From contig NW_003215602.1 of the NCBI RefSeq assembly GCF_000006405.1, positions 51,001-88,339 of the forward strand: a DNA stretch of 37,339 nt, written 5' to 3'. The position numbers and the translations under genes are program-made. Below are positions 1,831-36,522 of this stretch, piece by piece. Within the stretch, counting starts at the first letter, position 1; every line of letters starts with the position of its first letter. This stretch comes from Perkinsus marinus ATCC 50983. Taxonomy: Eukaryota; Perkinsozoa; Perkinsida; Perkinsidae. A model generated the notes under the pieces. The model was not told the DNA's origin. It was given only the letters and a program-made list of their open reading frames with translations, and ran no database searches.

Positions 1831-1852
1831 GTCATCAATGATGACTCATCAT
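1831..1852. repeat. 14-bp inverted-triplication insertion (S = TCATCA)
   Basis: Pattern w-S-x'-S'-w'-S-x with w=G and x=T, all 14 determined bases correct. No second copy of this locus is in the window. Confidence 0.7.
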
Positions 1853-1869
1853 AATCACAGGACAAACAA

Positions 1870-2367
1870 ATGCGGAACAAATTGAGCATTGGCGATTTCA
1901 CTCACAAAGTTGTGAACGATATTCTGCCAATGTCCAGTAGAAAGATTGACCGCTCGAACGCCGCGAATACGAGGCATTACGAAGATGTAACGGAAGTAGG
2001 GGCGTCGAAAACAGAACATGCAACTGCCGCAAAATGGGAAGCTACGGCGAAAATTACCGAATTTTCGCATGCTTCAGCTAACATGCGTTACATATTTACC
2101 TCATCGAGGAAAGTTGACTCAGGTTTCCTCACTCCAGCCAATATCCTCCGTTACATCGGAATGTTGAAGGGGAATAGCCAGGATGCCAATTTTAATGAGT
2201 TCACGTCTTTGATGCTGAAAGTTTATGTCATCCACGTCTCTCGTCAAGCCACATCTTGGCGCCAGTGCCGCTGTTCTTTTACCTCATTTTTGAAGTCGAA
2301 AGTGTGCTACCACGTAATTGAAGTCGGTATAAGACTCCGTTCACTTGACAGCATGCCACTCTACTGA
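1870..2367 (+). CDS. Unrecognised 165-aa reading frame
   Basis: An uninterrupted ATG-to-TGA frame of 165 codons between the two tRNA-like sequences. The product is Ser/Thr/Lys/Arg-rich, has no signal peptide or clear membrane segment, and shows no family motif I recognise. The minus strand is also partly open here, so it may be chance or a decayed transposon exon. No splice signals were identified with confidence. Confidence 0.2.
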   Translation: MRNKLSIGDFTHKVVNDILPMSSRKIDRSNAANTRHYEDVTEVGASKTEHATAAKWEATAKITEFSHASANMRYIFTSSRKVDSGFLTPANILRYIGMLKGNSQDANFNEFTSLMLKVYVIHVSRQATSWRQCRCSFTSFLKSKVCYHVIEVGIRLRSLDSMPLY

Positions 2368-2513
2368 GTGGCGCGCAGTGGCGCAATCACTACCGATGTG
2401 GAGAAGCAAAGGGGTAATGTACAAGATGCTGCTTGCCTCAGACAATACAACTACGATAGCTGAACTATACCGGAAGAATGAGTTCACGAGCCAAAACTAC
2501 TAATCTCGGACTA

Positions 2514-2552
2514 CGAATACCTCACGTGATTAGTAACCACGTGAGGTATTCG
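2514..2552. repeat. Perfect hairpin, 15-bp arms, 9-nt loop
   Basis: Arms 2514-2528 and 2538-2552 are exact reverse complements around loop ATTAGTAAC. It is one of three hairpins in the window with a loop of exactly 9 nt. Confidence 0.8.
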
Positions 2553-2622
2553 CTTACTCGTAGTAACCACTGGTTACTTCGTTTTATTTCGCGAAAGGGC
2601 GGGTATTTAATAGATTATGCTT

Positions 2623-2689
2623 TTATCATAGATTCGAACTTGGGCGCCCCCTGAGAAAATCTTAAATTCTAACCACTACATCACAATAA
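2623..2689 (-). repeat. tRNA-like sequence, minus strand
   Basis: On the minus strand a consensus B box (GTTCGAATC, 2631-2639) follows a one-mismatch A box (TGATGTAGTGG, 2673-2683). The flanking 7-mers TTATTGT and ATGATAA pair along all seven positions, two by G-T wobble, as an acceptor stem would. The T stem has mismatches and the total is about 67 nt, so a tRNA relic or SINE head is more likely than a working tRNA. It points toward the tRNA-like sequence at 1.6 kb. Confidence 0.4.
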
Positions 2690-2743
2690 TCACAAAAAAT
2701 TTTCACCAAGTGTCCACGGATTAAAGTGCGAGTCCTCGCAAAA

Positions 2744-3629
2744 GTCGATTTTCCGAGGGCTATTTCCGAGAACTCGGACCGAGTCACTTTCCCCGAATTT
2801 AAGTGCTAAACGACAACACGAGCTCGGACTCGGAAAAAACTCATAACTCGGAAACATTCGAACTTAGATATATAGTAATCTCGCGACCAGACTGACTGCG
2901 TGATTCGAACACTTCTTTGCATTTATCAATTAATTTTACGTAATGCGTTGAAGAGAAGCATCGCGCGATCAAGGAACACGTGATATCACCACAACACAGT
3001 CGAGTTTGCGAGTGCCTCGAAACTCACAGTGAGTGAGTGATACTCACAGGCGCAAGTCTCTTCAATGCGGCTACAAAGGGCTACAATACGACATTCCAGC
3101 CTTGCAAATTAATACTCCTGTCTTCACAAGCGCACATATCGAACTACCTCCGAAAAGTTAGTTCAAGCGGGATACAAAGCATTGATTTCCGTTAACAACA
3201 AAATGTTTGTATCGGGAAGAAGAGCGACAGAGGAGTGAGCTTGTGTTCGGCGAGGCTTTGGGTCAGTTTGCTCTCGATGACAATAGCCATGCCTGAGCCA
3301 ATAATGATATTGGCAATAGCTTATTGCACGTAGCCTGTATGTGTTTGAGCTGTTTGGTGGCTGAGCTTCTGCTATCTTGGCGCAGAGTTGCGTTTTTCCG
3401 AGCTCGGGTCCAGATCTCCGGGAGTCCAAAGACCCTGAAAACTTTTTGAACTTGGAACTCGGAAAGCAGGGCACATTAATCGAAAATAGGAAAATCGCTT
3501 TCCTCGGAACCGAGTAACACGAATTCCGAGCTCGGAAAAATGCTCGGAATTCCGAACGCTCTTTAATTCGTAGTTTTTATCCGAGTTCGGAAAAGCCGCT
3601 TTTCCGAGAACTTGGGCTCGGAAATCGAC
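2744..3629. mobile_element. Probable non-autonomous DNA element rich in CTCGGAA/TTCCGAG
   Basis: Both ends carry inverted GTCGATTT(T)CCGAG. The ~150 bp inside the left end and ~230 bp inside the right end hold many copies of CTCGGAA or TTCCGAG in both orientations, while the middle (2,890-3,390) has few. Terminal inverted repeats with dense subterminal repeats are typical of non-autonomous hAT- or MULE-like elements. The right end abuts the point where homology to the UbiA locus (TCGACAGAAG, 11.65 kb) begins. No clear target duplication was found and no transposase is encoded. Confidence 0.4.
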
Positions 3630-4455
3630 AGAAGTAGTACTTCTGTCGATGAAGTACGAAGTACGAAGTCACTTCTGAAGTACGTCATTGGCATAGTAGA
3701 GTGTTAGGACAACGGACCCTAGCAGAACGTAGGAAACCTGAACGAGTTCATTATAGCTAGCGAGATGTGGCCATACACATAATTGGCAATTATGTGTGAG
3801 TCCGTGTTGTATACTATGTGTATACTATGTTGTATACACATGATCAGTGCACAATAATTAACTTCGGGCACAGCCTGTACTCGTACAATAGCTATGTATC
3901 ATAATGATGATGAGTAAGTGCACAACGTCACATAATTCACAATGTGAATTTCACACGACTATTCCTTTCTTCTCCGCGTTATTGCTAGCCAGTGGAATAT
4001 CCGCGCACCTGAAAAGACGACATGCTAAGGCGACTGAGATTAGCAACAAGGTTCTATAATGAAGACACTTCGATTATCTAATAGAACGAGGGTGAGAAAA
4101 TTATGCCGAACACGAAATATCAACTGTTCGAGAAGGACCTAGCCTCCAAAGAAAAAATATATTCGGCAGATGATCTGCCGCAGATCCACAAAGTTCTTAT
4201 CAGTGTTGGAGGAATATATGCTCGCTTCTCTCAGCTGACTCTTCACTATACACGTGTTAATGTGAATTTTGTACAGAAACCAATGAGAATCTGCGCAAAT
4301 TCCGTCAGACTTTTCATACTATCACCAACCATGTGCATATTTTCCTACAAGCTCCTCGTTATCACCGATTGATGGTATCGAGATGTTATTCACATCACAA
4401 GACAACATAGTATAACAGGAAGAAATTAGGAGCACGCACAGCAGCTCCCAAGGGC
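3630..4455 (-). pseudogene. Truncated UbiA gene copy A (3' part, exon 2 lost)
   Basis: This stretch is collinear with 11,660-12,530 of the intact UbiA gene on the minus strand: part of exon 3, intron 2, intron 1 and the 3' end of exon 1. Most of exon 2, which carries the second Asp-rich motif, is missing: the sequence runs from the intron 2 region (near 3,960) straight to the intron 1 acceptor region (near 3,990). Homology ends at CCAAGGGCC and is fused to an integrase scrap. An 89-codon plus-strand frame (4103-4372) falls in intron sequence and is spurious. Extra palindromes (3,630-3,690 and 3,775-3,797) are absent from the intact copy. Confidence 0.6.
3775..3797. repeat. Perfected palindrome, 11-bp arms, 1-nt centre
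   Basis: Arms ACACATAATTG and CAATTATGTGT flank one G. The matching site in the intact UbiA copy (about 11,758-11,782) is an imperfect palindrome, so this copy looks like one arm was corrected against the other. Confidence 0.7.
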
Positions 4456-4720: not shown

Positions 4721-4742
4721 CTTCTGACTCAGAAGTTCTGAG
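4721..4742. repeat. 14-bp inverted-triplication insertion (S = TTCTGA)
   Basis: Perfect w-S-x'-S'-w'-S-x with w=C and x=G. The same site is simple (GAGACTTCTGAG) in unit B near 14,450 and in unit D near 31,990. Confidence 0.85.
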
Positions 4743-4925: not shown

Positions 4926-5378
4926 ATGTATAGATCGAACTGCAAGTTGGTGATCTTGGTCCTGATCATTTCGATGTTATCAGTGTTCGCCGACCCTCCC
5001 AAAGGCCACTACGTCGGATCTGACTTGAAGCCTAGTTATCTTCGAATAGATGCAGCATTCAGCGACATTCAAGGTTCTATGACCCTTCATTTCAGTATCG
5101 AATGTGGCGCTACCCGTAAAAGGTTCGACGCGTGGTTTGGGCTCTTCCTCTTGCCTAACACGAGGTACAGATATGCAATCTTGCCCCCTCTAGATGAGTA
5201 TAACCAACTGTTATCCTTTTACAACAAGGAATGCGGCCGCGCTCCAGCAAGTTTTCCTGATTTCTACAACTTCGGCTACGACGAAGTAGCTGGTCGCGTC
5301 TCCGTTCTGGTCACAGGGCCTGAAAGGAGTAAGATGGTTTACCTATATAAGCATAAGCCGTCATTTTGGCACCGGTAG
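4926..5378 (+). CDS. Small secreted protein, family member 1 (150 aa)
   Basis: A single uninterrupted frame. Residues 1-22 form a classic signal peptide: M-Y-R-S-N-C-K, a hydrophobic run, then an S-V-F-A cleavage site. The mature part of ~128 aa has two cysteines (C60 in I-E-C-G-A-T-R-K and C103 in K-E-C-G-R) that could form one disulphide, a P-D-F-Y-N-F motif near 111-116, and a basic aromatic C-terminus. There is no transmembrane segment after the signal and I recognise no domain. Member 4 (32.2 kb) is nearly identical, and members 2, 3 and 5 are more distant. Members 2-4 end shortly after K-x-x-S/P; here the frame runs four residues further because the usual stop is changed. A secreted effector-like role is inferred only from size, signal peptide and tandem expansion. 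Confidence 0.75.
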   Translation: MYRSNCKLVILVLIISMLSVFADPPKGHYVGSDLKPSYLRIDAAFSDIQGSMTLHFSIECGATRKRFDAWFGLFLLPNTRYRYAILPPLDEYNQLLSFYNKECGRAPASFPDFYNFGYDEVAGRVSVLVTGPERSKMVYLYKHKPSFWHR

Positions 5379-6105
5379 CTTGGAGGGGAGTAGATGGCGT
5401 CTCGCTGAGGAGAGTCTACTGTAACATTCCTTCTAGCATCGTCCTTAGCCCCGTCAGATGCTTCATCATGAATCTTTTATTCAACATCCACCCGTGGATG
5501 AATGATTATTACCCTTTTCCAGTTACATCGGCGCGTTTTATTAGAAATTTCATTCGAGAGGATGGATACATAATCATCTTTTATGGGTCCAGAGTGTATA
5601 CGTTATTCTTGGAGTATACTGAGCATGCATCTGCCCGTACGAAGAGTCACATTCAGTTGGTCATATCATCGAGTCGACTATGAAGTCACTTTGGTAACCA
5701 AAGTTTGGTTGTCTCAGTCGAGACATGGGTATCGATACTATCGATACCCATGCTATCGATTCGATAGCGTACAGCTCTAAAGATTTACAGATTCTGTCTA
5801 GATTGCTCTGTCGCGTTCTATCAAGTGACTAACCGTACGCAACATCTTGCCACACTCAGTGTGGCAAACTGTCTTAAGACGCAAAACCTGCGAGATGGAG
5901 GCGTCTCACTCGGCATGCGCTTTACATTGAATCTGGTCAACAGATTTCGGTTAGTCGGACAGAACGCGTCAATGTAACTGTAGTGAGTCATTCACCGTGA
6001 ATGATTCACAGTGGTATCTGTCGTGGTGATAGACACTTGTCGGTTGGAGATCTCAGAATCCTTCAGCTATGAAGCACTGTGATGTGGACCGAATCCATTT
6101 GCTCC
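5379..6105 (+). repeat. 3' flank of unit A, shared with units B-E
   Basis: Non-coding sequence homologous to the 3' flanks of the other four genes, beginning with TTGGCACCG(G/T)TAGCTTGGAG. The first ~170 bp, probably 3' UTR, are the best conserved. Several local palindromes are unique to this copy, including a 14-bp-arm hairpin around 5,726-5,754 and a 12-bp-arm one near 5,986-6,012. Homology ends near 6,105 at a Gypsy fragment. Confidence 0.7.
5850..5871. repeat. 14-bp inverted-triplication insertion (S = CACACT)
   Basis: w=C, x=G; one mismatch in the second S (CAAACT). Units B, C and E carry the uninterrupted CTTGCTACACTA at this site. Confidence 0.75.
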
Positions 6106-7245: not shown

Positions 7246-8053
7246 AAATCGTGATTTAGGTTTTGGAATCCTAGGATTAGTTTTTACTAAAATGTATTAT
7301 TCATTGTTATTCATTGTCATTAATCCCAATATTAGACAAAGGGGGCAGCTAATGGAGTTGAGTAAATTAGTAGATTAGATTCAGATTGAAAGAAGTTTTT
7401 TCACGTAACTACTAACTTCAGATTCGAAACTCGAGATTTATAAATCCGGAAACCTAATTGATATAACAAGATGGTCAACTATTTGGTCAAGTTTGGAGCA
7501 TTGGTCAACTAAACTATTATTATTATCCCCTACAACCTGTACAGCCTGATGCCTTAGTATGATTGTCAGATTGATCATTAATATCTATTCATAAGATAAT
7601 TATTATTCAACCGCCCATACACATATAGATACCAAGAGATTGCCTTATTAAGCTTAGTCAATGCAGATTATAATCCTTACACACTTCTCCGACATTAACA
7701 TCTACATCTACATCATCACACACTCCTCTCCATTCTCCGGATGCTTTTCCAGGTCTTCTCAAGATGTTATAGTGTAAGTTACTTGGATGAGTTTATCGCT
7801 TCTCATATTCATACCAACATGAAGGAGGCTCCTTCAAGGAGCCCTTTCTATTGTATGTTCGCAGAGTTTGATGTGTTGAGTGGTAAATAACCGAAGGGCC
7901 GTTAGACGGGTGGTATCAGTGATGGCCCTTAGCAAGTGGAAACTCAGGACCACTGTTCGCATAGGACACGTTGTTATAATAACGACGTTATTCCCTGTTG
8001 ATATCGCTGATGGTCGGCATGACCATATGCTGGTGATGAGCAGTTACTGTATG

Positions 8054-10674: not shown

Positions 10675-10709
10675 CGTAGTTATGCATTGATGATCAATGC
10701 ATAACTACG
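10675..10709. repeat. Perfect hairpin, 16-bp arms, 3-nt loop
   Basis: Arms 10,675-10,690 and 10,694-10,709 around TGA, just after the MULE remnant. It is followed by further partial copies of the same words. Confidence 0.8.
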
Positions 10710-11535
10710 ATCAATGATTGATCTCTTTATGCGTTGTCCACGGTTTCAACTTTAGTGGATATTGCATCGTAAACTCATCTCGTAGACGCTAACTCAATCA
10801 ATCAAAGGTTTCTTATTTCATCGTATCAGCATCAGCGACTCAAGTTCCTGCAATCCAACATCAATGTCTTGTGCGCTTGGCTCGTTTGAAGCTGTACCCC
10901 TCGAGTTTTACGTGCGTTTTTTCAACTGGTTTCAGCCACCCGGATGTTACTTTATTGACGCTATCCAGTGTTCGAGTTCGACGAGCTTTGACGCAATCTA
11001 TGTGTTATAAGAGAATTTTATTTTCTCACACGGCCTCATATCATCCTGAGAGGATGAGTTTGGTATGATGATCACTGAAGATTTTCCGGCCATAAGTCAT
11101 TCATCTTGGTGTGAGTAGAAAGTCCTACGCTGTTGCCGACTTGGTAACACTTGATACCGATGTGTAAGCAACTCGATGAATTCTCTGTTGGGTGACTGAA
11201 TAACCGTTATTCAGTTAGTCCGAACACTGTCCTGTGACACAGGACCTGTGTGCATCTTCGTCATCAATCTATCCGGCGTGTCTAACCTCTTCATATCACT
11301 CAATTTCAACTATTCTGTCTGCTGCCTATGGAAAATTACATACAACTCAACAGTTGAGTCAACACTAACGCAGGAGTAGTTGTCAGACAGGTAATAAAAG
11401 TAGTAATGATGATTGTCGTCACTAGGATCTCCAACAATGGGCAATATGCTGTCATTGTACCCTCTAGGAGTAAAAGTAGGTCTACACTAGATTCTAGCGC
11501 GGAAGCGATATACACTAGGCAGGATGAACGACGAC
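10710..11535. other. Intergenic, no gene seen
   Basis: The 3' side of the UbiA gene. Only short frames without motifs. It contains one 14-bp inverted triplication (11,230-11,251) and a 10-bp-arm palindrome just upstream of it. Confidence 0.5.
11230..11251. repeat. 14-bp inverted-triplication insertion (S = CCTGTG)
   Basis: Perfect pattern with w=T and x=T. No paralogous locus is available. Confidence 0.7.
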
Positions 11536-14160: not shown

Positions 14161-14166
14161 CCTCTG

Positions 14167-15975: not shown

Positions 15976-15997
15976 GTGACAGGCTGTCACTGACAGC
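15976..15997. repeat. 14-bp inverted-triplication insertion (S = TGACAG)
   Basis: Perfect pattern, w=G and x=C. Also present at 35,873-35,894 with one mismatch, so it predates the B/E duplication. Confidence 0.75.
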
Positions 15998-17357: not shown

Positions 17358-18702
17358 CATACCCCGGCATTTTGGCGGGATGAGAATAGTCGAGAATTCC
17401 CGTCAACATGCCGAACCGTTATTCTCTCTCGTTTTCGTCTCGCGAGATTTCGCGAAATTTCGCGGAATATTTCGTCAGGCGACGCACGTGTGCGCCAACA
17501 GGAAAGCAAAAAATTGGCTCAACTGACATTGCTCCGCCATTAAGCCGAAATATCGCGCGCCATGTACTACACATGTAGTATATACTACATAGTATATATT
17601 ATTTGCAGCGCTTATTTCATATGCCTTGTCCGCAAAGTCCTTCTTGTCGTTCTCGTTCACCGGAACCGGCTAGGTCGCCAGGTGAAGACTCCACAATACG
17701 TCTTGTTGATCTCACGGCCATCATCGATGATCTGGGCAACGACCAAGGCAACGACCAGCTGGTCACAGAGTGACCACTATTAAGATCCCTTGAACTGGGG
17801 TTTATACCGCCTCTGGAAAGCGCTCAATCAAAAGCACTGGTTCTCAACCCGAACTTTCCAATGGCTATCCTATATGCCATTCCCGTCCAATGCCATACAA
17901 GATAGCCAGCCTAAATCTGGGCGCGTATACCAGGTACAGGTATACTATACCTGTACCGAGAAATGTTATTCCCTTAGATGCCGCATAGGCACAGGTCTTT
18001 GGCCAAAAGTGGAGTATGAGGCTCAACCTTTGAGCACCAAGTTACTATTTAACTAGCCGTTATCACGTTCTAGGCTTTTTCACTCGTGTCACGTTCTGTA
18101 GTCAGACTGAGTATCACAGACTTCCAATGAGGTCTTTCGTTGGTAGTGCGGATTCAATAAGAATCCACAAACTCTTTGGCGGCAAGTGGCATCCTGCTTA
18201 CTACACACCAATTAATATAGTCGTATATACTATGATAATAATACTATAATATAGTACTATCATCACAAATCACAGATTACAAATTACTATAGCACGAAAT
18301 GTTTATCGCAGAGATTTGGTTAGAACTACTGGATACTCCCGACTCATGATCCGCGACGTGTGAGATACTGTACGCCTTAGAGAACAAGGCCATTTAAAGC
18401 GCGACAGGTCTCTGGTACAGTCGCTCTGCATATAGCGGATGTATTTATATCTCGCACTGCGGTTTGCCGTCTGCGGGACATAAAAACATGAAATAGCACA
18501 AGAATGTTCGTTGCAGTGCCAAACTCAGAGAATAATTCACAGAAGAACTCATTAATAGCTGACTGCAAGATTCGGCGAGAATCCCGCGATATTCTCGCTT
18601 ATTCTCGCGACCCTGCACAGCTCACTATTCTCTCTCGTTCTCGTTCGCGAGACGAGAATAATGCGAGTCTCGACTTTCTCGAGACTCGCATGCCGGGGTA
18701 TG
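17358..18702. mobile_element. hAT-like non-autonomous element, 1,345 bp
   Basis: Begins CATACCCCGGCAT and ends with its inverted copy ATGCCGGGGTATG. It is flanked by an 8-bp direct repeat GTACGAAT (17,350-17,357 and 18,703-18,710). Units E (37,274-37,281) and D (29,588-29,595) show the empty site with one GTACGAAT. Subterminal regions share TATTCTCTCTCGTT and GCGAGA-type words, typical of hAT elements. Inside are only short frames and no transposase, so it depended on another element. Internal palindromes include GGTACAGGTATA (12-bp arms, 17,933-17,957) and a 13-bp-arm hairpin beside the right end. Confidence 0.85.
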
Positions 18703-18710
18703 GTACGAAT

Positions 18711-23220: not shown

Positions 23221-23242
23221 GGTGTAGACTACACCGTGTAGT
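23221..23242. repeat. 14-bp inverted-triplication insertion (S = GTGTAG)
   Basis: Perfect pattern, w=G and x=T. Units B and E have the simple TTT(T/A)GTGTAGTCGGACG type site. Confidence 0.9.
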
Positions 23243-23381: not shown

Positions 23382-24446
23382 CAAACTTCTGAAAGTTTCG
23401 AGTTTCGAGGCTTGATCTCGAGTCGATTGGTCTTCAATCCCACCAAAATTGACTGATTAAAAGTTGGAGAATCGGATCGAGCCTCGACACCTGAGACCCT
23501 CAGATGTTGGTCATAGTAGCAGTACCATTAATTGTACAGTTACTGTACTATAGTACAACTTGTACTCGCTGTGGTGTTCACGGGAGCACTCTGCTGTCCT
23601 ATCAGCGGAATCAGGGTATGCCATATTCTACGGCAAAGGTTAGGAACGAAGCTTGCATCGGAGAGCTCTACAAATTAACATTATCGAGAGGCTTTAGACG
23701 AGAGCTCGCCCCAGACGATCGACATCGTTGTTCATACACGTGTCAGGCGAGCTGGGCACATGTTTGAGGTCTGTCTGGGCCTACTGGTTACAGTAGCATC
23801 AGGATTCCTGCAGAAGCTACTGGTTCAGCGTTGCTGGACGCGGATTTTCTATAATTCCCGAAAAGGCTGGTATTATTCCCCAAAATAATTCCTTTCTTCC
23901 CTTCCCTAGGAATATTCCCGGGAATAATAGGGATAATTCCCCACTTTCAGCCACCCTGGAGCGAGTGAATACTTCTCATTGGGTCATAATTGCGGCTGAA
24001 AAGGAGGAGCACTGTCAGATGGGACTCAATCTATGAAATGATCGATAAGATTATCAAAAGCTGGTCAGCAGTTGAGGATCTTTTTCGAGAAAAAAAGACG
24101 CTGTAGTACAGCGAAAAAGGGAGTGATTCTCTGATTTAGTTTGGTGTGACTTCAGTAATTTCTATAATCTACTTTCGAACAAGGAGTTACTTGTTCAAAC
24201 GCGAAGCTTTCTGCAGCCGTTCCGTGTTGTGACCAAAGTTATGCAATGCCGTTCGCCTGATACTGCTGTGAAGTTTATCATGTAAGTGCCCATGTTCGTA
24301 CGTTCTATGTGTCACTGGTGCAATGTGACGCACACTTCGTTATCATCCGCTTAATGGTAATCCGCACCACGTTATGTCACCTTGTAGAACATATTGTGCG
24401 TTGCGCTGATCGCCCCGTAAGTCATTTTATCAAATCGTTACTATCA
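23382..24446. other. Insertion in unit C, non-coding part
   Basis: Left part of the ~1.8 kb that interrupts unit C. 23,848-23,950 is rich in GGGAATAAT/ATTATTCCC words in both orientations, which look like transposon subterminal repeats. No coding sequence is recognised in this part. Confidence 0.35.
23534..23555. repeat. 14-bp inverted-triplication insertion (S = TACAGT)
   Basis: w=G, x=A; one mismatch in the second S. No paralogous locus. Confidence 0.6.
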
Positions 24447-25196
24447 GGGAGCTGGAACGTTGCTGGCGATTTCTACAGACTTTCCCACAAGGAGAGTTTG
24501 ATGAATTACAAGAGATTCGCGCGAACCTCAAAGTTTTTTACGGGCATGAGTTTCAGGTCATACTCAATCTGACACCAGACGCCCTGCTCCCCGCAATGCT
24601 ACATCCTGTAACCAAAGTCCGAGGCGTCGAGAAATTGGAGATGGTTGTCGAGTTCAGGAGACGTGTGAGAATTGAACAGTCGATTCTTCGACGTGAGAAT
24701 TTGGTGAATGCCTTGGTCAGAGATCACCACGGACGAAGACATCGTTGATCTATGCGATGACGAAAGTAATGAGGAGAACAACAACAGGGAAATCAACGTT
24801 CCACCAGAAATTGTTGAAATCACCGATGATAGCCTCATGCGTGGGCTACTCGACGTGCAGGAGCTCCCAAGATGGGCTGATGATGGTACACACAAAACAA
24901 GAGATGAGAAGGCTATCTTGATCGACAAAGAGGTGAAACAATGGGCGAACCTTGTTGGTCATTCTGAGGACTATCAAGCCTTCTGGAATACTGCTAAGCT
25001 CGAATATCCATATCTTGCTCGCACGGCTACGGTAGCTTATGGTGTTGTTATATCGACAGCCTGTGTCGAAAGCTTATTTTCGGAAATTCAAGACATCAGC
25101 GGTGATAAGAGGTCGAGACTGAGGATAGCGGTCATAGAAGCATTACAAAAACTTGGCATACGCAGGGGCTGTTCGACGAATAGAGGTTGGTCATAG
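24447..25196 (+). pseudogene. hAT transposase C-terminal remnant
   Basis: Frame 24,447-24,749 reads L-K-V-F-Y-G-H-E-F then L-L-P-A-M-L-H-P-V-T-K, matching the region of hAT transposases before the dimerisation domain. A different frame (24,708-25,196) carries an acidic linker and the hAT dimerisation signature: Y-P-Y-L-A-R, then S-T-A-C-V-E-S-L-F-S, then K-R-S-R-L-R and V-I-E-A-L. The two frames overlap at 24,708-24,749, so a frameshift has occurred. The DNA-binding and catalytic N-terminal two thirds are absent or unrecognisable. It lies inside unit C. It is not evidently the source of the hAT-like element in unit B. Confidence 0.7.
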
Positions 25197-25204: not shown

Positions 25205-26230
25205 ACATTAAAGTGGTATCTGTCGTAGTGATAGACACCTGTCGGTTGAGGATCTCAGCACTGTGATGTGGACCGAATCCCTGTGCTCTTTACACCAGAG
25301 TTGTCCGTACCGGCATTCAAGTTGTCATAAGCAACTCGTTTGTTGGACTCATCCGTAGCAAGAAGCTGTATCTTCTACATTATCTTCTTTATCGTAGCGT
25401 AAGGGTATACCGGTCGATACGAAGTCCTTCGAAACTATGGTGAAGGTTCACTGCGGAAGTAGAAAATTCTTCGAAAGTAGGTTGAACAGCGAGAATACTC
25501 ATAATGCAGATACAAGGGCTCTGAGACGAAGCCGATTTTCTCCAGTTGAAAATAATGTTTCGCAGCTGTACAATCTAGGCCCCACCTTTCGATAGAAGTT
25601 GACTGAGGTCAGCCAAACTTGAGGGATGCCGAGAGGCCTCCTCCACCGTCGCCTTCAACGATGTCACCCGTAGGCGAAGTTTCTGAATTAAAGGTATGAA
25701 AATGGGAGCACCGTGCAGCACGGTCCGTGCTTCATCAGAACCAAGGATCTCAATACACGACTGTTCTCACTTCTTATGAAGCTTCGAAATGTGACATTTC
25801 CAATGTCTGCAGAATACCAGTGTGAGAATATATGTTTTTCCTCAACTGAGTTCGTTAGTTTCCTCAATACATTGTGAAAATCCACACACGACTTTCCCAA
25901 AATTTCCTCAGAATTTCCCTATTTCTACCAACACATGTGGTTGACCATGTGCGTAGATTCCTACGCTGCGAAATGCAGTGAAAAATCAACACTGTAGCAT
26001 TTGAAATGCTACAACTTGCTAGACGGAAACGCTGCATTTCCATGCCAAATTATTTTTTTAAGAAAAGTTTACTTTTATTGCCCATTTTGTTACTATTTTA
26101 TCCGTTTTGTAAATATTTTATTTGGTTCAACCAAATTGGTTGACATTGTTCAATTTTGGAAATATTCCACCCGTTTTGTTGATTTTTTACCTTTTTCTTC
26201 AACATTAATATAAAAAATTAACTAAAATTA
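25205..26230 (+). repeat. 3' flank of unit C, second part
   Basis: Resumes homology with B and E (compare 15,720 onward) with a deletion after CTGTGCTCTTTAC. It is diverged and contains palindromes of its own (25,990-26,010 and near 26,115-26,135). Ends in AT-rich sequence near 26,230. Confidence 0.6.
25786..25807. repeat. 14-bp inverted-triplication insertion (S = AAATGT)
   Basis: w=G, x=C; one mismatch in the second S. Units B (about 16,740) and E (about 36,663) carry simple CGAAATGTCTGC. Confidence 0.85.
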
Positions 26231-26669
26231 AAGTATCGTTCCACGCGATTGCACACATTCCCGCCGTCGATGTCCTAGGCGGGCAAATACCTTATGAAAG
26301 GGCTGAAGAGCCAACACCCAAGGAACTCATATCTGTAGGCCCAGACATCTCTGTAAGCCCAGACATCGGCGGCTCCCTTATTCACTTAGTGAATTTCATA
26401 GTGAATTTCACTATGTTGAACTTGAGACTCACTTCTTGCTAATCGACTATACATATGAAAAAAACGCCAGATTTGTTATCCAAGACTGTTGGGTAGTTGG
26501 TTCGGTGAAAGCCGTTAGCTATTTGTTCAGGCAGTGAGCATAGCTAGAAGCATCGAGTAATAGCTAACATGTTGAAGGGCCATCGACTGGTCCGGTCGTT
26601 ATCCCTGCTGACAGGTGCTCTAGAGCAGCACCGATGACATCAGGACCTGATGATCAGGTCCTGATAAGC

Positions 26670-26691
26670 CGGACTTCAAGTCCGGGACTTG
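26670..26691. repeat. 14-bp inverted-triplication insertion (S = GGACTT)
   Basis: Perfect pattern, w=C and x=G. It follows directly after a 12-bp-arm hairpin (26,639-26,665). Confidence 0.7.
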
Positions 26692-27735
26692 ATAATCGAA
26701 TTACAAGTTATGAAATGCAGTTGTCAGCGATGGGCTATCTTTCCCGAACCGCCCATGTTGCCCGCGGTATTACCATTCTGGTTGTGCATATGCTGCACCT
26801 ACTAAGCAATGATCTGTAGTTATACATCTCCGCGGGGCAACATAGGCCTCCCCATTCAACTACCTACCTCGCGACTCGATTTTTTGCATTTACCAAGAGA
26901 GTGCCGAAGATATAATTATCTTCATTCCTTCATCAGCAATCTAAGAACTTACCCACTGCCCAAATTTGCACTGCTTCCGTGCGCATCCGTATCTCCAAAG
27001 GGTACATGCGCATGCTTTCAGAACCTCGTCTTCAAAGCCTCTTCGCAGTATTCTCCGTACACGTTAGAACGCCATTCTGACCTCCCTTCGCCAATTCCTC
27101 GCTCAAAAAGCCTTGACACTAAACTGCGTCTCGCTGAATAACCGGTTATGTTATCCTAGTTCCATCCCAGTGCCTGCATTGACCCAATATTAATGGGTAT
27201 TCCTCGTTCAAGGACTCTTTCAGCTTCGCTGCAAGAAATTTCCGAATATCTGGGAAGATGCGCAGGTACTGACTCAGTGTTACTGAGAACGTGATGCTTC
27301 TTTATTTCGCTGCGAAATTTTCGCAGCAGATATTAATGACCAGTTCGTGCGCGGCGCACCATCTAGCTCTGGAATTGTGAACGTTGGGGCGTTCCGTCTT
27401 CTTTCTTGTCGCCTCCGTGTCTTCATGCCCTGGATACCTATCCGCAAGCGCTGCCTTTTCCCGAGGCCGTCGGTTTTCACCGAGTTGTCCATCAAGTTGT
27501 ATGTTTCATCTATTTAAGTGACTAATGCGGTGCGCATCAACGCGAGAGTTCTAATTTGATCGGAGAGGCTGCCAGTACTTGTGCGAGGGCTTATCAGGGC
27601 GTCGATAGGCTCGTCCCCAGATTGGAGAGTCCCCAATGGGGACCCTAATTGTGCCAGTATCCTTCTTTACGTATCTCTTTATTTGTCTTTATTTTGTCTG
27701 ATGCCAATTTAAGTCATGAGTTCCATAACGCCCAT

Positions 27736-27757
27736 GTTGCCAGTGGCAACTTGCCAC
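27736..27757. repeat. 14-bp inverted-triplication insertion (S = TTGCCA)
   Basis: Perfect pattern, w=G and x=C. No paralogous locus. Confidence 0.7.
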
Positions 27758-27850: not shown

Positions 27851-27872
27851 TATGAGACTCTCATAATGAGAG
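27851..27872. repeat. 14-bp inverted-triplication insertion (S = ATGAGA)
   Basis: Perfect pattern, w=T and x=G, 94 bp after the previous one. Confidence 0.7.
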
Positions 27873-28696
27873 CAGCACTGATCGCGTCAATGGAGGCGTC
27901 AGCAGAAGCCAAACACCTCTGTGCGATGAATCACCCATCATGGGTGTTTCCCCAGTTCCTATTGCGCGAACGTGACAAACGAACTCAGAGTTGAGCACTT
28001 CAAATTGAAGTCTTCAATCCTTTTCTCGAGATTGCTTCGTAGTCTGACCGAATACCTCACACTTCGCAATCTCTTGCGCTCAATGATGCAGTGGACGTCG
28101 TATAAGGCTGCGAGGCCGCACCTATAAACAAGGCAGATCTGCCCAGAGAAAAGTAGCCTGTCAGCAATTTTTGGACGAGTGGATCCTTCGACCATTCTTC
28201 AAAGGTCAACTCTGGATGATTAGCTAGCGGAAGTATATCCTATTCAGTACCAAATCTGTCGTCATAGCTATCGCATGTGAAATCAGAACAATCGTCAGCG
28301 ATATATTGGGCGTCGACCTCGATGCTGGGGAACTCTTCATGGAGACTGCCATCTCATCAACGAACTTTCCGACAGAAAGTTTAAGACCTCAAGAACGGCT
28401 AGGAACCCAGAATCCGGGTCCCGGACCGACTCAATACCAGAAGTGGTGAGTGTCCTGCGGTCGACTGCGACCATCTCACCCTTCAAGGCTGACCCATGAC
28501 ATGATTCTCTAAATCATCGGCATTCGCCATTGAAGGGATAAACAGGAAGCTGATAGAATTGAGAGAGAAAATCAACAACCTGGATAAAGAGAGGAACAGT
28601 TCATGGGTCCGAGATGGATCGTTCAATACGTAACGTGTGCCATTGCTCGCGTTTCAGCATAGGACCAGTTGCACAGCCACTGCGGCAGTTGCAAAT

Positions 28697-28718
28697 GTCT
28701 AACCGTTAGACTCTAACG
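28697..28718. repeat. 14-bp inverted-triplication insertion (S = TCTAAC)
   Basis: Perfect pattern, w=G and x=G. No paralogous locus. Confidence 0.7.
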
Positions 28719-29022: not shown

Positions 29023-29043
29023 ACTCAATTTTTATGACATACG

Positions 29044-30091: not shown

Positions 30092-30113
30092 AAATACGCC
30101 GTATTTAATACGG
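30092..30113. repeat. 14-bp inverted-triplication insertion (S = AATACG)
   Basis: Perfect pattern, w=A and x=G. The B copy (near 19,112) has a simple CAATAAGGTGAACAT at this point. Confidence 0.8.
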
Positions 30114-30195: not shown

Positions 30196-31222
30196 CAGGG
30201 TGTCCCAAATGACTCGCAGAAATTTTCCAAATTTTTCCGCGAGTAAAATTTTTCAGAAAACTTTTGCTGAGTGTGCACTTTCAATGTAAGAGACCTTCCA
30301 TTCATCTAATACAGGCTGTATTATACAGCCTCACGATAGTTAGAGTGGAGGAGTAGCTTTGTTACTCTCACCCAGCATGCCTCGAATGAAGGAAATACCT
30401 CATGATAAAAACCCAAGTTTGGGTTTCTAGACTACGAATGACCTAGATTTAGCTCACACTGGGCGGAGAATCTCGATCCAGCCAGGTCTCTTAGAGAATA
30501 ATCATTTTTCCACTAGATTCTTCAGCATGACTGCCATAGGTGGGCGGTCTATCGCGGACCCTGGGCAGGCGAGACAGTCAGGGACTCTGTCAGAGTGGAT
30601 CAGTGATCCAACGCTGAATGGCAATGACATTGCAACTGTCAGCTGATGATTAGCTCAATATATATTCTACACTGAGCCACCCCAACTTCTACAATATAGA
30701 ATTTTTCTAATAAAAGTTTGAATAGAAGCTCCCACTTCAAGGCCTTTCCAGAGGAAGTCTGCTGATTTCAACTGGAATAGTCCTCCAAATCTAAGCTAGG
30801 GATGGAAATTCCATCATGGAATACGATGATGTAGAGTCCCGTCATATGCAGCGCGGCGCCACTGGCGTCATGATGCAGCATAAAGAAGTAATCGAACGAG
30901 ATACTGTTGACGGTCGCCCGTATATGAATTCACTCGCAGATATAACCGACACGATCCGCGGCAAAGTTCGTAGTATTCAGCAAACAGGAAGTTTTCAAAT
31001 CATTTGAGTCAAATGCAATATGATCCCCACGGAAGCTTGCAGGAATGATTCATTCATTCTGAATGAATTGTGTCAACGCATTTGCTCTAAATTACACGAA
31101 TATCCACTCCCCGCCAATTGTGGGAACTTTCCGAAACTTTCGGAAAAATTCCCGGAAACTTTCCTCTAAAACTTTCCGCCGTTTGGGAACCCCTTTCCCG
31201 AGTCGGGAATCCCGACACCCTG
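30196..31222. mobile_element. Possible DNA element with CAGGGTGTC ends
   Basis: Starts CAGGGTGTCCCAAATG and ends with the inverted 9-mer (GACACCCTG), where it interrupts the integrase fragment. Both ends are followed inward by AT-rich GGAAA/TTTCC-rich sequence. No target duplication is visible and the first 100 bp also occur, diverged, in unit B, so the boundaries are uncertain. A 63-codon frame (30,816-31,007) is unrecognised; no transposase. Confidence 0.3.
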
Positions 31223-31876: not shown

Positions 31877-32195
31877 GCAGGTTCACACCGCACAAGGTTG
31901 TGCGGAATCTTGTTCATTGATAGCGTTTTATGTGAAATACGCGAGTTGATCGATATTGTTAGGGCAGAATGGCTCCGGAATGAGGGAGACTTCTGAGGAT
32001 CTTTTCTTTCGGCAGCATCGGGATATGTTTGAACTTCGATTGTAAACATCTTCTGGTCACTAAGTCATCATCTAGCGGCGATGGCACTGTTGGATTGTGC
32101 ACCAGTGGTGATTGGCTTGATCTAGAAAACGCTACACTAAAAGCATCGAATTGAGTATCATGTGTAGTAACTTTTCATCTCATCCTTCTCCATCC

Positions 32196-32633
32196 ATGTA
32201 TAGATCGAACTGCAAGTTGGTGATCTTGGTCCTGGTGATTCCTGTGCTATCAGTGTTCGCCGACCCTCCCAAAGGCCACTACGTCGGATCTGACTTAAAG
32301 CCTAGTTATCTTCGAATAGATGCAGCATTCGGCGACATTGAAGGTTCTATGACCCTTCATTTCAGTATCGAATGTGGCGCTACCCGTAAAAGGTTCGACG
32401 CGTCGTTTAGGCTCTTCCTCTTGCCTAACACGAGGTACAGATATGCAATCTTGCCCCCTCTAGATGAGTATAACCATCTGTTATCCTTCTACAACAAGGA
32501 ATGCGGCCGCGCTCCAGCAAGTTTTCCTGATTTCTACAATTTCGGCTACGACGAAGTAGCTGGTCGTGTCTCCGTTCTGGTCACAGGGCCTGAAAGGAGT
32601 AAGATGGTTTACCTATATAAGCATAAGCCGTAA
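32196..32633 (+). CDS. Small secreted protein, family member 4 (145 aa)
   Basis: Nearly identical to member 1 except for a few substitutions and a stop at the usual place, giving a shorter C-terminus (…K-H-K-P). Signal peptide 1-22, C60 and C103 are conserved. The frame is open 15 codons further upstream to an ATG at 32,151 because of one extra base in the CT-rich leader. I chose the inner ATG since it places the hydrophobic core correctly and is common to all members. The 3' flank also resembles unit A, so A and D form one subfamily. Secreted; function unknown. Confidence 0.75.
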   Translation: MYRSNCKLVILVLVIPVLSVFADPPKGHYVGSDLKPSYLRIDAAFGDIEGSMTLHFSIECGATRKRFDASFRLFLLPNTRYRYAILPPLDEYNHLLSFYNKECGRAPASFPDFYNFGYDEVAGRVSVLVTGPERSKMVYLYKHKP

Positions 32634-33180
32634 TTTTGGCACCGGTAGCTTGGAGGGGATTAGATGGCGTCTCGCTGAGGAGAGTCTACTGTAACATTCC
32701 TTCTAGCATCGTCCTTAGTCCCATCAGATGCTTCATCATAGATAATTTTTTCAACATCCACCCGTGGATCAATGAATATTACCTTTTCCCAATCACATCG
32801 GCACTTTTTATCGGAAATTTCATTCGAAAGGATGGATATATAATCATTTTTTATGGGTCTAGAGTGTATACGTTATTCTTGGAGCATACTGAGGATGCAC
32901 CCGGCTGTACGACGAGTCACATTCAGTTGGTCATATCATCGAGTCGATTATGAAGTCACTTTGATAACCAAAGTTTGGTTATCAAAGTGAATCATTCACC
33001 GTGAATGATTCACAGTGGTATCTGTCGTGGTGATAGACACCTGTCGGTTGGAGATCTCAGAATCCTTCAGCTATGAAGCACTGTGATGTGGACCGAATCC
33101 CTGTGCTCTTTACAATGTGGAGATGGTATAATTCATCTCTGTATTTCACTTAACGTTTGAATGACTGCGATTTCCTGCCA
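32634..33180 (+). repeat. 3' flank of unit D
   Basis: Closest to the unit A flank. A 16-bp-arm hairpin (32,956-32,990) and an overlapping 12-bp-arm one (32,987-33,013) replace a longer stretch of flank that is still present in A. Homology ends near 33,180. Confidence 0.65.
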
Positions 33181-33884
33181 CGAAACCTTTACCAGGACCC
33201 TAGCAGAAAATTGAGCGCCAAGGCTTGGTGGTTTTAGAGGGTTTTGGGGGAAAATGGAGGGCGCCTGTCAGTTTCTAAGGGCAAGCAATGATGACTCGTC
33301 ATTGACGAGTCCATAACTTATACATATGATGTACAAGGCCGAACATCCAATGGAGGTGTAACACACTGAACTTCGGTGACCGATTCAGTCAGACCGAAGA
33401 CAGCTGATTGCAAACAAAACGCTTGAATTATTGCATCTCGAATGAAAGTGGCACTGAAGTTTAGTAGCTAGAACAAACCACCGTAGTTCACAGGATAGCA
33501 GATTATATATCGATTTGATATCGCTTAATGCTACATGCTTGCGACTCGCAAGTTGCGAGTCGATGGCTTAAATTCTATATCAGACTCATCAACTCAAAAC
33601 AGTTAGGTAAGAAACTAAGTTAATAAGTTATTTGAACCTATCGGATGGGTTCATCCTACCCGATGTGCTCGAGGAATTCTCTCTGAGACTTCTTTACCAT
33701 GATCCGTCCATACCTTCTCGGCTCTGAATCAGAGTCTCTGATATATGTGTCGTGCCTCTGCAGCGGGTCGGAACTTTTGACCGGCCTGCCCGCTCAGGTG
33801 ACTGTAGGAAACTTCGCTAATATAACATCGGCCACCCGACGGCATTGACCTAGTGAAAAGGAATTACCCCGCAGACGTAAGCGC
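33181..33884. other. Spacer between units D and E, no gene seen
   Basis: No frame with a motif. Palindromes at 33,286-33,304 and near 33,543-33,563, and one 14-bp triplication. Confidence 0.5.
33721..33742. repeat. 14-bp inverted-triplication insertion (S = CTCTGA)
   Basis: w=G, x=T; one mismatch at w'. No paralogous locus. Confidence 0.6.
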
Positions 33885-33903: not shown

Positions 33904-33925
33904 TTGGCAGTCTGCCAATGGCAGA
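33904..33925. repeat. 14-bp inverted-triplication insertion (S = TGGCAG)
   Basis: Perfect pattern, w=T and x=A. Unit C has simple GCCTTGGCAGAACAC near 21,451. Confidence 0.9.
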
Positions 33926-34244: not shown

Positions 34245-34266
34245 GATAGGGGCCCTATCATAGGGC
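34245..34266. repeat. 14-bp inverted-triplication insertion (S = ATAGGG)
   Basis: Perfect pattern, w=G and x=C. Unit C has simple CCGAGATAGGGCTAA near 21,781. Confidence 0.9.
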
Positions 34267-34510
34267 TAAACACGTAGCCCTATCCGGGTCCACGGCACGT
34301 GATACGAGAGATGCACGCAAGTACATCGCGAGGCGATATCACGCACGTTTAACACCGAGAAACAGGGTTTGGCGGAACATATACATCATCTGGTCACTAA
34401 CTCATCATCTAGCGGCGATGACAATGTTGGGTTGATAGAGAAAACGCTACACTAAAAGCATCGAGTTGAGTATCATGTGTAGTAACTTTTCATCTCATCC
34501 TTCTCCATCC

Positions 34511-34963
34511 ATGTATAGATCGAACTGCAAGTTGGTGATCTTGGTCCTGGTGATTCCGATGCTATCAGTGTTCGCCGATCCTCTCCAAGGCCACTACTTC
34601 GCATCTGACTTGGAGCCTAGTTATCTTGGAATAGATGCAATTTTTTTTATAAGGGAGAGCAATCCTCTAAAACTCCAACTCCGCATCATATGTGGCAAAC
34701 AACGTCACGGGTTCGGAGGGTGGTTCGATCTCGAGCCAACCAACGACGTGGTACCGTCGCTGCCAACCCAGAAGATATATAAAACAACTGCTGGTGCCAC
34801 TATACCCATCGACTGCGGCCGCCCCCGAGCAAGTATGCCCGATTTCTCCACCTACTACTACGACGAAGCAGCTGATCTCGTCTCTGTTAAGATCAAAGGG
34901 CGTGAAAATGAGGAGAAGACGATTAACCTAAATAAGTATAATCCGCAAATTTTGCCACCGTAA
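34511..34963 (+). CDS. Small secreted protein, family member 5, divergent (150 aa)
   Basis: Signal peptide 1-22 is conserved almost to the residue, but the mature domain is the most divergent of the five. The G-A-T-R-K and L-L-S-F-Y-N-K-E stretches are replaced, residues 72-98 are unalignable by eye, and only the two cysteines (C61, C102), the D-C-G-R-P-R-A-S-M-P-D-F region and the D-L-V-S-V-K-I-K-G strand remain. The tail Q-I-L-P-P is new. The frame extends 15 codons upstream to 34,466, as in member 4; the inner ATG is preferred. Intact despite divergence, so probably expressed. Diversifying change of a secreted protein is an inference. Confidence 0.7.
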   Translation: MYRSNCKLVILVLVIPMLSVFADPLQGHYFASDLEPSYLGIDAIFFIRESNPLKLQLRIICGKQRHGFGGWFDLEPTNDVVPSLPTQKIYKTTAGATIPIDCGRPRASMPDFSTYYYDEAADLVSVKIKGRENEEKTINLNKYNPQILPP

Positions 34964-35642
34964 GCTTGGAGGGGATGAGGGATGACCTCTCGCTGAGGAG
35001 AGCCTACTGTAACATTCCTTCTAGTATCGTCCTTAGTCCCGTCAGATGCTTCATCATGAATCTTTTATTCAACATCCATCCGTGGATGAATCATTATTAC
35101 TTTTTCCCAATCACATCGGCGCTTCTTATCGGAATTTTTCACAGAAAATGTGATTCGAGAGGTTGGATATACAATCATCTTTTATGGGTCTAGAGTGTAT
35201 ACATTTTCCTTGGAGTATACTGAGCATGCATCTGCCCATACGAAGAGTCACGTTCGGTTGGTCATATCATCGAGCCGATTATGAGGTCTTATTGGTTGTC
35301 TCAGTCGGGGCATGCTTATCGATAGCGTACAGCTTTTGAGGATCTTAGAAATTTACAGGGTCTGTCCAGGTTGCTTTGTCGCGTTCTATCAAGTGAGTAA
35401 CCGTACGTAACATCTTGCTACACTAACTCAAGACGCAAGACCTGCGAGATGGAGGCGTCTCACCCGGCATGCGCCGCGCTTTACATTCAATCTGGTCGAC
35501 AGATTTTAGTGTAGTCGGACGAAACGCGTCAATGTAACGAATACTTTTGAGTTAGTATAGTGAGTATGATCGTACTGTATGTTAATATGCTGAGTGATTC
35601 ACCGTCGTACCTGTCGTAGTGATAGACACTTGTCGGTTGAGG

Positions 35643-35664
35643 ATCTCAGGCTGAGATTCTCAGC
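35643..35664. repeat. 14-bp inverted-triplication insertion (S = TCTCAG)
   Basis: Perfect pattern, w=A and x=C. Unit B (near 15,756) and C (near 25,250) have simple GGATCTCAGCACTG. Confidence 0.9.
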
Positions 35665-35872
35665 ACTGTGATGTGGACCGAATCCCTGTGCTCTTTACAA
35701 TGTGGAAATGGCATAATTCATCTCTGTATTTTACTCAACGTTTGAATGACTGTGATGCTCTGAAGTCAAGGCGCTCCTTCCCTACAGGGCGCTGGTCGAC
35801 GAGTTGGTCACAGTGTTGGTAGGTTCGCGAGTGAATGACTGGAGCCACGTCCGAGACGCGACGTCAGAGCTG

Positions 35873-35894
35873 GTGACAGGCTGTCACTGATAGC
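35873..35894. repeat. 14-bp inverted triplication, copy of the unit B event (S = TGACAG)
   Basis: Same event as at 15,976 with one substitution in the second S, inherited through the B/E duplication. Confidence 0.7.
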
Positions 35895-36456
35895 ACGTCG
35901 AACAACAACTTGGTTATACGAATTTGTGTCAATCAAGCCGTTCGCAGCATCGGGTACACCCCAGAGTTGAGCGGTAAATTCGATGCTAAGAATCTTGACA
36001 TCGATTCGTGTATCAATGCTATGGATGGATGAGCTGCGCTCATAAGTGATTAACTCGCATTTTCCTACTTCTCAATGTCATCATTGTGAATATCAAGTCT
36101 CTCAGTTTCGTAGGATCCCCCGCGTTCATATTGTTAACACACCTAGTATATCTCTCGCCAAGTTCAAGCAATGTACGATGCAACCTTATCAACCGTATAA
36201 GAATAACGATGATCTCTGCTTCGCCTCTTGTCCTAACCGGCGTTTGAGTTGTCATAAGCAACTCGTTTGTTGGATTCATCCGTAGCTGTATCTTCAGCGG
36301 TTGATATCGTATACACCTCTTTATCGTGGTGTAAGGGTATACCGGTCGAGACAAAGCCCTTCGAAGCTATGTTGAATGTTAATCGCGAAAGCAGAGAATT
36401 CTTAGAATTAGAAAAGTAGGTTGATCAGCGAGAACACTCATAATGCAGATACAAGG

Positions 36457-36498
36457 GCTCTGACTCAGAGCTCTGACTCTTCGTCTCAGAGACGAAGC
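36457..36498. repeat. Compound palindromic insertion of 27 bp
   Basis: Between GGGCTCTGA and GACGAAG, which are contiguous in unit B (about 16,557), E has two adjoining inverted copies: one of GCTCTGAG and one of GAGACGAAG (9-bp arms, 1-nt centre). It looks like two events of the 14-bp type with one base lost and some later change. Confidence 0.7.
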
Positions 36499-36500
36499 CG

Positions 36501-36522
36501 ATTTACAGTGTAAATTTTACAC
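36501..36522. repeat. 14-bp inverted triplication, copy of the unit B event (S = TTTACA)
   Basis: Same perfect pattern as at 16,577. Confidence 0.75.

What the first reader, a model, noticed from the sequence alone, without database searches (positions are those of the whole stretch)
1831..36522. Recurrent 14-bp inverted-triplication insertions with fixed geometry
At 21 separate places (start positions 1831, 4721, 5850, 6207 nested twice, 10440, 11230, 15976, 16577, 22780, 23221, 23534, 25786, 26670, 27736, 27851, 28697, 30092, 33721, 33904, 34245, 35643) the sequence has the form w-S-x'-S'-w'-S-x. S is 6 bp, a prime means reverse complement, and x and w are the bases next to the original S. 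Fourteen bases are fixed by the other eight. A perfect match is expected about 0.00014 times in 37 kb of random sequence (37,339/4^14), yet about 16 are perfect and the rest differ at one or two bases. S differs every time, so this is not a repeat family. The product is strand-symmetric and always 14 bp longer, which argues for an enzyme or repair complex with defined spacing (for example a 6-nt staggered cut plus an inverted 8-bp copy, or two template switches) and not random slippage. It resembles a nano-scale duplication/inverted-triplication event. I know of no described system with this signature.
Basis: seen in the sequence. Interest (0 to 1): 0.95.

Follow-up and report, generated by a model that had tools for sequence, protein, structure and literature searches.

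The report
Transposon excision scars, uniformly repaired
The odd 14-base insertions look like healed scars left where cut-and-paste jumping genes of the hAT kind landed and left again, nearly all mended in one particular way, so that this DNA keeps a dense record of vanished jumping genes.

Summary
Paralogues show empty sites: one 8-mer w-S-x, with 14 bp added. The formula equals T[1-7]+rc(T)+T[2-8], with T=wSx. That is the product expected when a hAT transposon with an 8-bp target duplication excises, leaves flank hairpins offset by one base, and these are opened far from the tip and annealed through the 8-nt target sequence. Support: six sites carry 20-31-bp insertions that fit the same two hairpins joined without annealing; resident elements' 8-bp duplications share the scars' sequence preference; one hAT derivative sits inside a scar. 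Excision itself was not observed. The cleavage chemistry is known (Ac/Ds, Hermes). Unusual are the near-uniform repair outcome and the density: 1.3-8 perfect scars per 10 kb with few resident elements found.

The parts
160..181 (.). perfect scar, T=CATCCCGG
1831..1852 (.). perfect scar, T=GTCATCAT
4165..4186 (.). perfect scar, T=GGCAGATC
4721..4742 (.). perfect scar, T=CTTCTGAG; 14-bp gap in paralogues
5689..5710 (.). perfect scar, T=CTTTGGTT; 14-bp gap in L041
6219..6240 (.). perfect scar, T=CAATGTCA
7821..7842 (.). perfect scar, T=GAAGGAGC
11230..11251 (.). perfect scar, T=TCCTGTGT
15976..15997 (.). perfect scar, T=GTGACAGC; shared with 35873, 14-bp gap in L041
16577..16598 (.). perfect scar, T=ATTTACAC; shared with 36501, 14-bp gap in L041
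22780..22801 (.). perfect scar, T=CATCCACC; 14-bp gap in paralogues
23221..23242 (.). perfect scar, T=GGTGTAGT; 14-bp gap in paralogues
25710..25731 (.). perfect scar, T=ACCGTGCT
26121..26142 (.). perfect scar, T=TTTGGTTG
26638..26659 (.). perfect scar, T=CATCAGGT; first of a chain of three palindrome centres 7 apart
26670..26691 (.). perfect scar, T=CGGACTTG
27304..27325 (.). perfect scar, T=ATTTCGCA
27736..27757 (.). perfect scar, T=GTTGCCAC
27851..27872 (.). perfect scar, T=TATGAGAG
27997..28018 (.). perfect scar, T=ACTTCAAT
28697..28718 (.). perfect scar, T=GTCTAACG
30092..30113 (.). perfect scar, T=AAATACGG; 14-bp gap in a paralogue
30308..30329 (.). perfect scar, T=AATACAGC; 14-bp gap in L012
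30801..30822 (.). perfect scar, T=GATGGAAT
31195..31216 (.). perfect scar, T=TTCCCGAC
33538..33559 (.). perfect scar, T=CTTGCGAG
33904..33925 (.). perfect scar, T=TTGGCAGA; 14-bp gap in a paralogue
34245..34266 (.). perfect scar, T=GATAGGGC; 14-bp gap in a paralogue
35643..35664 (.). perfect scar, T=ATCTCAGC; 14-bp gap in two paralogues
36501..36522 (.). perfect scar, T=ATTTACAC, paralogous with 16577
3935..3956 (.). scar, one mismatch
5850..5871 (.). scar, one mismatch; 14-bp gap in paralogues
5989..6010 (.). scar, one mismatch
23534..23555 (.). scar, one mismatch
25786..25807 (.). scar, one mismatch; 14-bp gap in two paralogues
26645..26666 (.). scar, one mismatch, chained with 26638
30994..31015 (.). 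scar, one mismatch
32986..33007 (.). scar, one mismatch, part of a chain of three centres
32993..33014 (.). scar, one mismatch, part of the same chain
33377..33398 (.). scar, one mismatch
33721..33742 (.). scar, one mismatch
35873..35894 (.). scar, one mismatch, paralogous with 15976
3624..3657 (.). long product: left hairpin read 13-14 nt, right 0-1 nt (20-bp insertion)
   Evidence: fit of the two-hairpin model, no clean paralogue seen
5724..5767 (.). long product: left hairpin about 14-15 nt, right about 8-9 nt, joined without annealing (29-bp insertion)
   Evidence: paralogues lack it but align with several gaps
10675..10723 (.). long product: left hairpin about 17-18 nt, right about 7-8 nt (31-bp insertion)
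17925..17957 (.). long product inside the resident element: left hairpin about 1-5 nt, right hairpin up to 13 nt; an exact 20-bp insertion against the sister copy L044
17350..17357 (.). 8-bp target duplication, left copy GTACGAAT
17358..18702 (+). resident 1345-bp element without coding capacity shown, terminal inverted repeat CATACCCCGGCA; absent from two paralogues, which hold a single GTACGAAT
18703..18710 (.). 8-bp target duplication, right copy GTACGAAT
24708..25196 (+). 162-aa ORF with a hAT C-terminal dimerisation match (PF05699, E 6.5e-5, 23.1 bits, cut-off 21.4)

Best explanation
The 22-mers are excision scars of hAT-type DNA transposons. (1) An element inserts and duplicates an 8-bp target T = w-S-x. 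(2) On leaving, the transposase nicks each flank one base outside the element and the freed 3' end joins the opposite strand, so each flank ends in a hairpin whose single tip base is the complement of the base next to the element (x' on the left, w' on the right). (3) Host enzymes open both hairpins at least about 7 bp from the tip. The unfolded arms x'S'w' and wSx are then complementary over all 8 nt of T; they anneal and are sealed as T[1-7]+rc(T)+T[2-8], a net gain of 14 bp. (4) Now and then the arms are joined without that annealing, leaving longer insertions. Shown here: the sequence, its excess, the empty sites, the long variants, resident elements with 8-bp duplications of matching preference, and one element inside a scar. 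Inferred: that an element occupied each site, the hairpins themselves, the opening distance, the polarity of the overhangs and the annealing step.
For: Only T length 8 with offset 1 is in excess; this is the geometry described for Ac/Ds, where palindromes centre on the complement of the base next to the transposon end (passages) and cleavage is placed at the flanking 5' nucleotide (passages). Of 18 fourteen-bp indels between paralogues, 14 are scars with at most two mismatches; 13-bp and 15-bp indels number 7 and 1. Fitting both hairpins with free lengths p and q gives 71 sites with p+q=8 and six with p+q=14, 14, 18, 22, 23, 25; 12 Markov simulations of the contig gave none with p+q of 7 or more. 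The 17932 case is an exact 20-bp insertion against a sister element. The element at 17358-18702 has an exact 8-bp duplication and is absent from two paralogues. PF05699 has 14 matches in the assembly, all 14 over the cut-off; C172:11890-14940 is a 3051-bp element with 12-bp perfect inverted repeats CAGGGGTTTATC, an exact 8-bp duplication and a 760-aa ORF. Twenty resident target 8-mers score 0.73 on the scar-derived matrix against -0.81 for background, 0 of 20,000 random sets as high; scars themselves 0.54 leave-one-out. L051, a relative of that hAT element (78-83% identical segments), sits in the middle 8-mer of a scar, 13 of 14 constraints met.
Against: No excision was observed, and no site is seen both filled and scarred in alleles or strains. 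Seven of the eight elements checked at both ends do not sit in such a scar (L046 has related palindromes). Scars far outnumber the resident elements found. The ordinary plant-type footprint (p=q=1) is not in excess, 2 seen against 2.6 expected. I predicted loss of Ku to explain annealing-dominated repair (note); a Ku match is present. 13 of the 20 resident 8-mers come from one-ended matches to a 13-base terminal motif, and that family alone reaches only p=0.013; the single TATAGATGGGC element alone p=0.28. Against solved structures one transposase only reaches Hermes weakly (E 0.02, residues 499-555) and another not at all. Of 33 lone odd palindromes in the window, 29 show no T suffix of 6 or more beside them, so much of that class is not accounted for.
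Confidence: 0.88

Rival explanations
1. A domesticated or free hAT-type transposase, or a related nuclease, makes the same staggered hairpin reaction at bare 8-bp targets, without an element ever having been inserted.
For: Many scars, few resident elements found. The scars' preference matches transposon targets, as it also would here.
Against: Both copies of T needed for rc(T) to be shared by the two flank hairpins arise naturally from a target duplication; without an insertion one has to invent a second copy. One element sits exactly in a scar.
Confidence: 0.05
2. Replication-based template switching at short hairpins (quasi-palindrome type mutation) made the insertions.
For: It produces inverted copies of neighbouring sequence, and some lone odd palindromes remain unexplained.
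Against: It has no 8-bp ruler and no reason for single-base tips; lengths 5-7 and 9-14 are empty or at chance, and the long variants keep the same T and tip offset.
Confidence: 0.03
3. Excision scars of another transposon superfamily with 8-bp duplications (for example Merlin-like or 8-bp MULE-like elements).
For: The CATACCCCGGCA family in the window has no transposase shown, so its superfamily is inferred from the 8-bp duplication and CA end only.
Against: Passages on the MULE element Muta1 report mostly precise excision when duplications are present. An element with a hAT domain and 8-bp duplication is in this genome, and a hAT-bearing family here has a related CATAC end.
Confidence: 0.04

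Closest known systems
Ac/Ds (hAT) excision footprints in plants, Saccharomyces and Candida
   Same: 8-bp target duplication, palindromes centred on the complement of the base beside the element, palindrome arms up to 20 nt in yeast, frequent use of microhomology (passages of PMC5873905; passages of PMC1978519)
   Different: There the products vary (28 kinds among 128 Candida revertants). Here one product, the full 8-nt anneal, makes up 71 of the 88 model-consistent sites, and the simple p=q=1 footprint is not in excess.
TcBuster / Hermes (hAT) excision in animal cells
   Same: flank hairpins followed by end joining, complementary nucleotides at the scar (passages of PMC3499496)
   Different: reported scars have a few added bases or deletions up to 50 bp, not one uniform 14-bp product
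V(D)J recombination P nucleotides
   Same: flank hairpins opened away from the tip leave short palindromes (comparison made in the passages; the details are recalled)
   Different: no 8-bp duplication and no one-base tip offset (recalled)

Membership tests
hAT transposon excision scars | 8-bp target site duplication | tested here: met
   scar geometry only at T length 8; exact 8-bp duplications at six elements checked at both ends with their regular ends (window element, L043, L044, L045, L048, L009) and at L051; not at L046
hAT transposon excision scars | palindromes centred on the complement of the base next to the element (tip offset of one base) | tested here: met
   offset 1 only; description of the feature
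hAT transposon excision scars | empty ancestral site with a single T | tested here: met
   paralogue alignments, 14 of 18 fourteen-bp indels (examples)
hAT transposon excision scars | hAT transposase in the genome | tested here: met
   14 PF05699 matches, all over cut-off; 760-aa ORF inside an element with 8-bp duplication
hAT transposon excision scars | same site seen occupied by an element | tested here: inconclusive
   L051 sits inside a scar, which fits recapture or re-insertion; no allele pair with and without element
hAT transposon excision scars | transposase active, hairpins formed | not testable with these tools
   needs an excision assay
RAG/Transib-type excision | 5-bp duplication, hairpin without offset (recalled) | tested here: not met
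   T length 5 with offset 0 has 1 perfect match
Mutator-like elements | about 9-bp duplication | tested here: not met
   T length 9 gives 0 or 1 perfect at offsets 0-4
template-switch (quasi-palindrome) mutation | variable lengths without a fixed ruler | tested here: not met
   single geometry

The most novel reading that the evidence does not exclude
In this lineage hAT excision sites are healed by a near-dedicated route: flank hairpins are cut well away from the tip and the 8-nt target sequence itself serves as the splint, thousands of times over, so that the genome preserves a datable record of where transposons once sat although few elements remain.
Probability: 0.4. Interest if true: 0.75.

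Novelty: new variant of a known kind. Interest (0 to 1): 0.6.

Why it matters
hAT hairpin intermediates are usually read from a few dozen laboratory revertants. Here each scar records its own target and repair outcome, and extrapolating the measured densities (1.3 per 10 kb in the rest of the contig, 3.7 in the other loci, 8.0 in the window) to 54.5 Mb gives very roughly 7,000 to 20,000 perfect ones at the first two densities. If right, a simple text search for the formula would reveal past hAT activity in genomes where the elements are gone, and hairpin opening and annealing rules could be read from evolution.

Tried and rejected
Fixed 14-bp copying or two template switches: rejected because the long variants keep the target and tip but not the length. 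Loss of Ku as the reason for annealing-dominated repair: predicted, then a Ku match was found; DNA polymerase A family and DRMBL (SNM1/Pso2-like) matches are also present and were not assigned further. Ordinary p=q=1 footprints: not in excess. Shorter joints (p+q of 2-6) in the contig are at simulated levels; p+q=7 has 2 against 0. Large insertions between paralogues: only 17358-18702 had both an exact 8-bp duplication and matching ends. Automatic search for exact 8-bp duplications with inverted ends in the contig gave 7 rows, one convincing. Target preference outside T: one of ten flank positions (-2) had chi-square 14.6; the others were 5.6 or less. Even-length or other spacings for lone palindromes: no spacing other than 7 stood out. 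Species: the assembly is unnamed; a cytochrome c1 exon is identical over 126 aligned residues to PDB 9fzl and 9fq7 chains, which I recall as Perkinsus marinus, not confirmed by any search (no paper held names those entries). A first protein search with a window ORF gave only unnamed relatives.
Full report
WHAT IS THERE. The formula w-S-x'-S'-w'-S-x occurs 30 times perfectly in the window, with 12 more at one and 12 at two constraint mismatches. Simulated sequence of the same dinucleotide make-up gave a mean of 0.00 perfect in 200 runs. Varying the length of T from 5 to 14 and the offset from 0 to 4, only T=8 with offset 1 is in excess; the 4 perfect matches at (10,3) share the same palindrome centres. 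Counting palindromes without any formula gives 135 odd ones with arms of at least 6 against 18 even ones, and 37 neighbouring centres exactly 7 apart.

HOW FAR IT EXTENDS. The window is C321:51001-88339 of a 54.5-Mb, 347-contig eukaryotic assembly. With mismatches counted against the majority base, the window has 30, 17 and 16 sites at 0, 1 and 2 changes; the rest of the fetched contig (130,647 readable bases) 17, 23 and 24; 22 loci on other contigs (69,847 readable bases) 26, 22 and 24. These other loci were picked because they carry hAT domains, relatives of the window or repair genes, and three of them (L013-L015) are near-identical copies, so their density of 3.7 perfect per 10 kb is not a random sample. 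Parts of the contig read N.

INSERTIONS INTO EMPTY SITES. Paralogous stretches within the window and on other contigs show the site without the 14 bp, holding one w-S-x (examples). Across 39 alignments (31,599 columns), 18 indels are 14 bp long, 14 of them scars with at most two mismatches; one further, at 30304, overlaps the perfect scar at 30308 but is placed off register by the aligner; 13-bp and 15-bp indels number 7 and 1.

WHAT THE FORMULA MEANS. With T=wSx it reads T[1-7]+rc(T)+T[2-8]: two overlapping hairpins, each with a one-base tip that is the complement of the outermost base of T. [quoted passage not shown] If both hairpins are opened at least 7 bp from their tips, the unfolded arms are complementary over exactly the 8 nt of T, and annealing there gives the observed product with no free parameter.

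THE EXCEPTIONS FIT TOO. Letting the two hairpins be read to any depth p and q, the contig and 20 other loci contain 71 sites with p+q=8 and 17 others; six of these are long (p+q=14, 14, 18, 22, 23, 25; insertions of 20-31 bp), four in the window at 3637, 5738, 10692 and 17932. Simulations of the contig gave none at p+q of 7 or more, while joints of 2-6 appear at simulated levels. The 17932 case is an exact 20-bp insertion relative to a sister copy of the same element. The window also holds 33 odd palindromes without a partner 7 bp away, 18 of them with arms of 8-17; four of the 18 are the long products just named, and most of the others lack a clear copy of T beside them and remain unexplained.

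RESIDENT ELEMENTS. The window holds a 1345-bp element (17358-18702) with CATACCCCGGCA ends and the duplication GTACGAAT, absent from two paralogues. Relatives lie in at least five other places, three of those examined with exact 8-bp duplications (L044, L045, L048). C172 carries a 3051-bp element with CAGGGGTTTATC ends, an exact 8-bp duplication, a 760-aa ORF and a hAT dimerisation domain. L009 is a second hAT-bearing element with duplication GTGTTGAA. Three copies of a third hAT-bearing family are identical or 99.96% identical over about 2,400 bp and then diverge. Scar targets (68 different ones) favour G, T and T/C at positions 1-3 with the mirror image at 8-6 (chi-square p 8e-6, 2e-3, 1e-4). 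Twenty resident target 8-mers share this preference (mean score 0.73; background -0.81; 0 of 20,000 random sets); seven come from elements seen at both ends, 13 from one end only.

AN ELEMENT INSIDE A SCAR. In L051 a relative of the C172 element is flanked by GTTGCAG-GCTGCAAC and GCTGCAAC-TTGCAGA: the middle 8-mer of a scar is its duplication, with 13 of 14 constraints met. Either an excised element was caught between the two opened hairpins or an element re-entered an old scar. Its terminal bases differ from those of the C172 element. L046 and L061 also have inverted copies of their own target beside them; the chance of a 7-mer inverted copy in one 32-nt flank is 0.011, so these two alone are weak.

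WHAT IS SHOWN AND WHAT IS INFERRED. Shown: sequence, excess, geometry, empty sites, long variants, resident elements, shared preference, L051. Inferred: occupation of each site by an element, hairpins, opening distance, overhang polarity, annealing. Ku, polymerase A family and DRMBL matches are present, so the reason why annealing dominates is open.

COMPARISON AND NOVELTY. Described hAT scars are heterogeneous (28 kinds in 128 Candida revertants; small insertions and deletions for TcBuster). In rice, passages on 94 putative excisions (all superfamilies) report only eight perfect ones. I saw no report of a genome filled with this one product in the listings; the yeast study of hairpin repair by Yu and colleagues is not held and may contain the same product. 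I therefore call it a new variant of a known kind.

Noticed in passing
window 4926-5378, 14638-15078, 22218-22658, 32151-32633, 34466-34963: Five related ORFs of 146-165 aa with hydrophobic, signal-like N-termini form a cluster; the three scanned or searched had no Pfam match and only unnamed relatives.
   Followed up: partly
window 26207-29352: A block of 3146 bp missing from two paralogous stretches; it holds seven perfect scars and no matching ends with an exact 8-bp duplication.
   Followed up: partly
window 26645/26652/26659 and 32993/33000/33007: Chains of three palindrome centres 7 bp apart, as if a scar had been hit twice.
   Followed up: partly
window, 18 lone odd palindromes with arms 8-17, e.g. 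925, 3786, 21074, 23344: Single long odd palindromes without a partner centre; four of the 18 are the long products, most others unexplained.
   Followed up: partly
L046 77-831 (C108:46106-46860) and L061 (C249:101749-101801): Element ends with inverted copies of their own target sequence beside them.
   Followed up: partly
L013, L014, L015 (C79, C157, C333): Three almost identical hAT-bearing copies that diverge at one shared end, suggesting recent movement.
   Followed up: partly
window 28908-29018: Tandem array with a 31-bp unit, 3.6 copies.
   Followed up: no
window 12373-13128, minus strand: ORF with a UbiA prenyltransferase match below the family cut-off (21.3 bits, cut-off 34.2).
   Followed up: no
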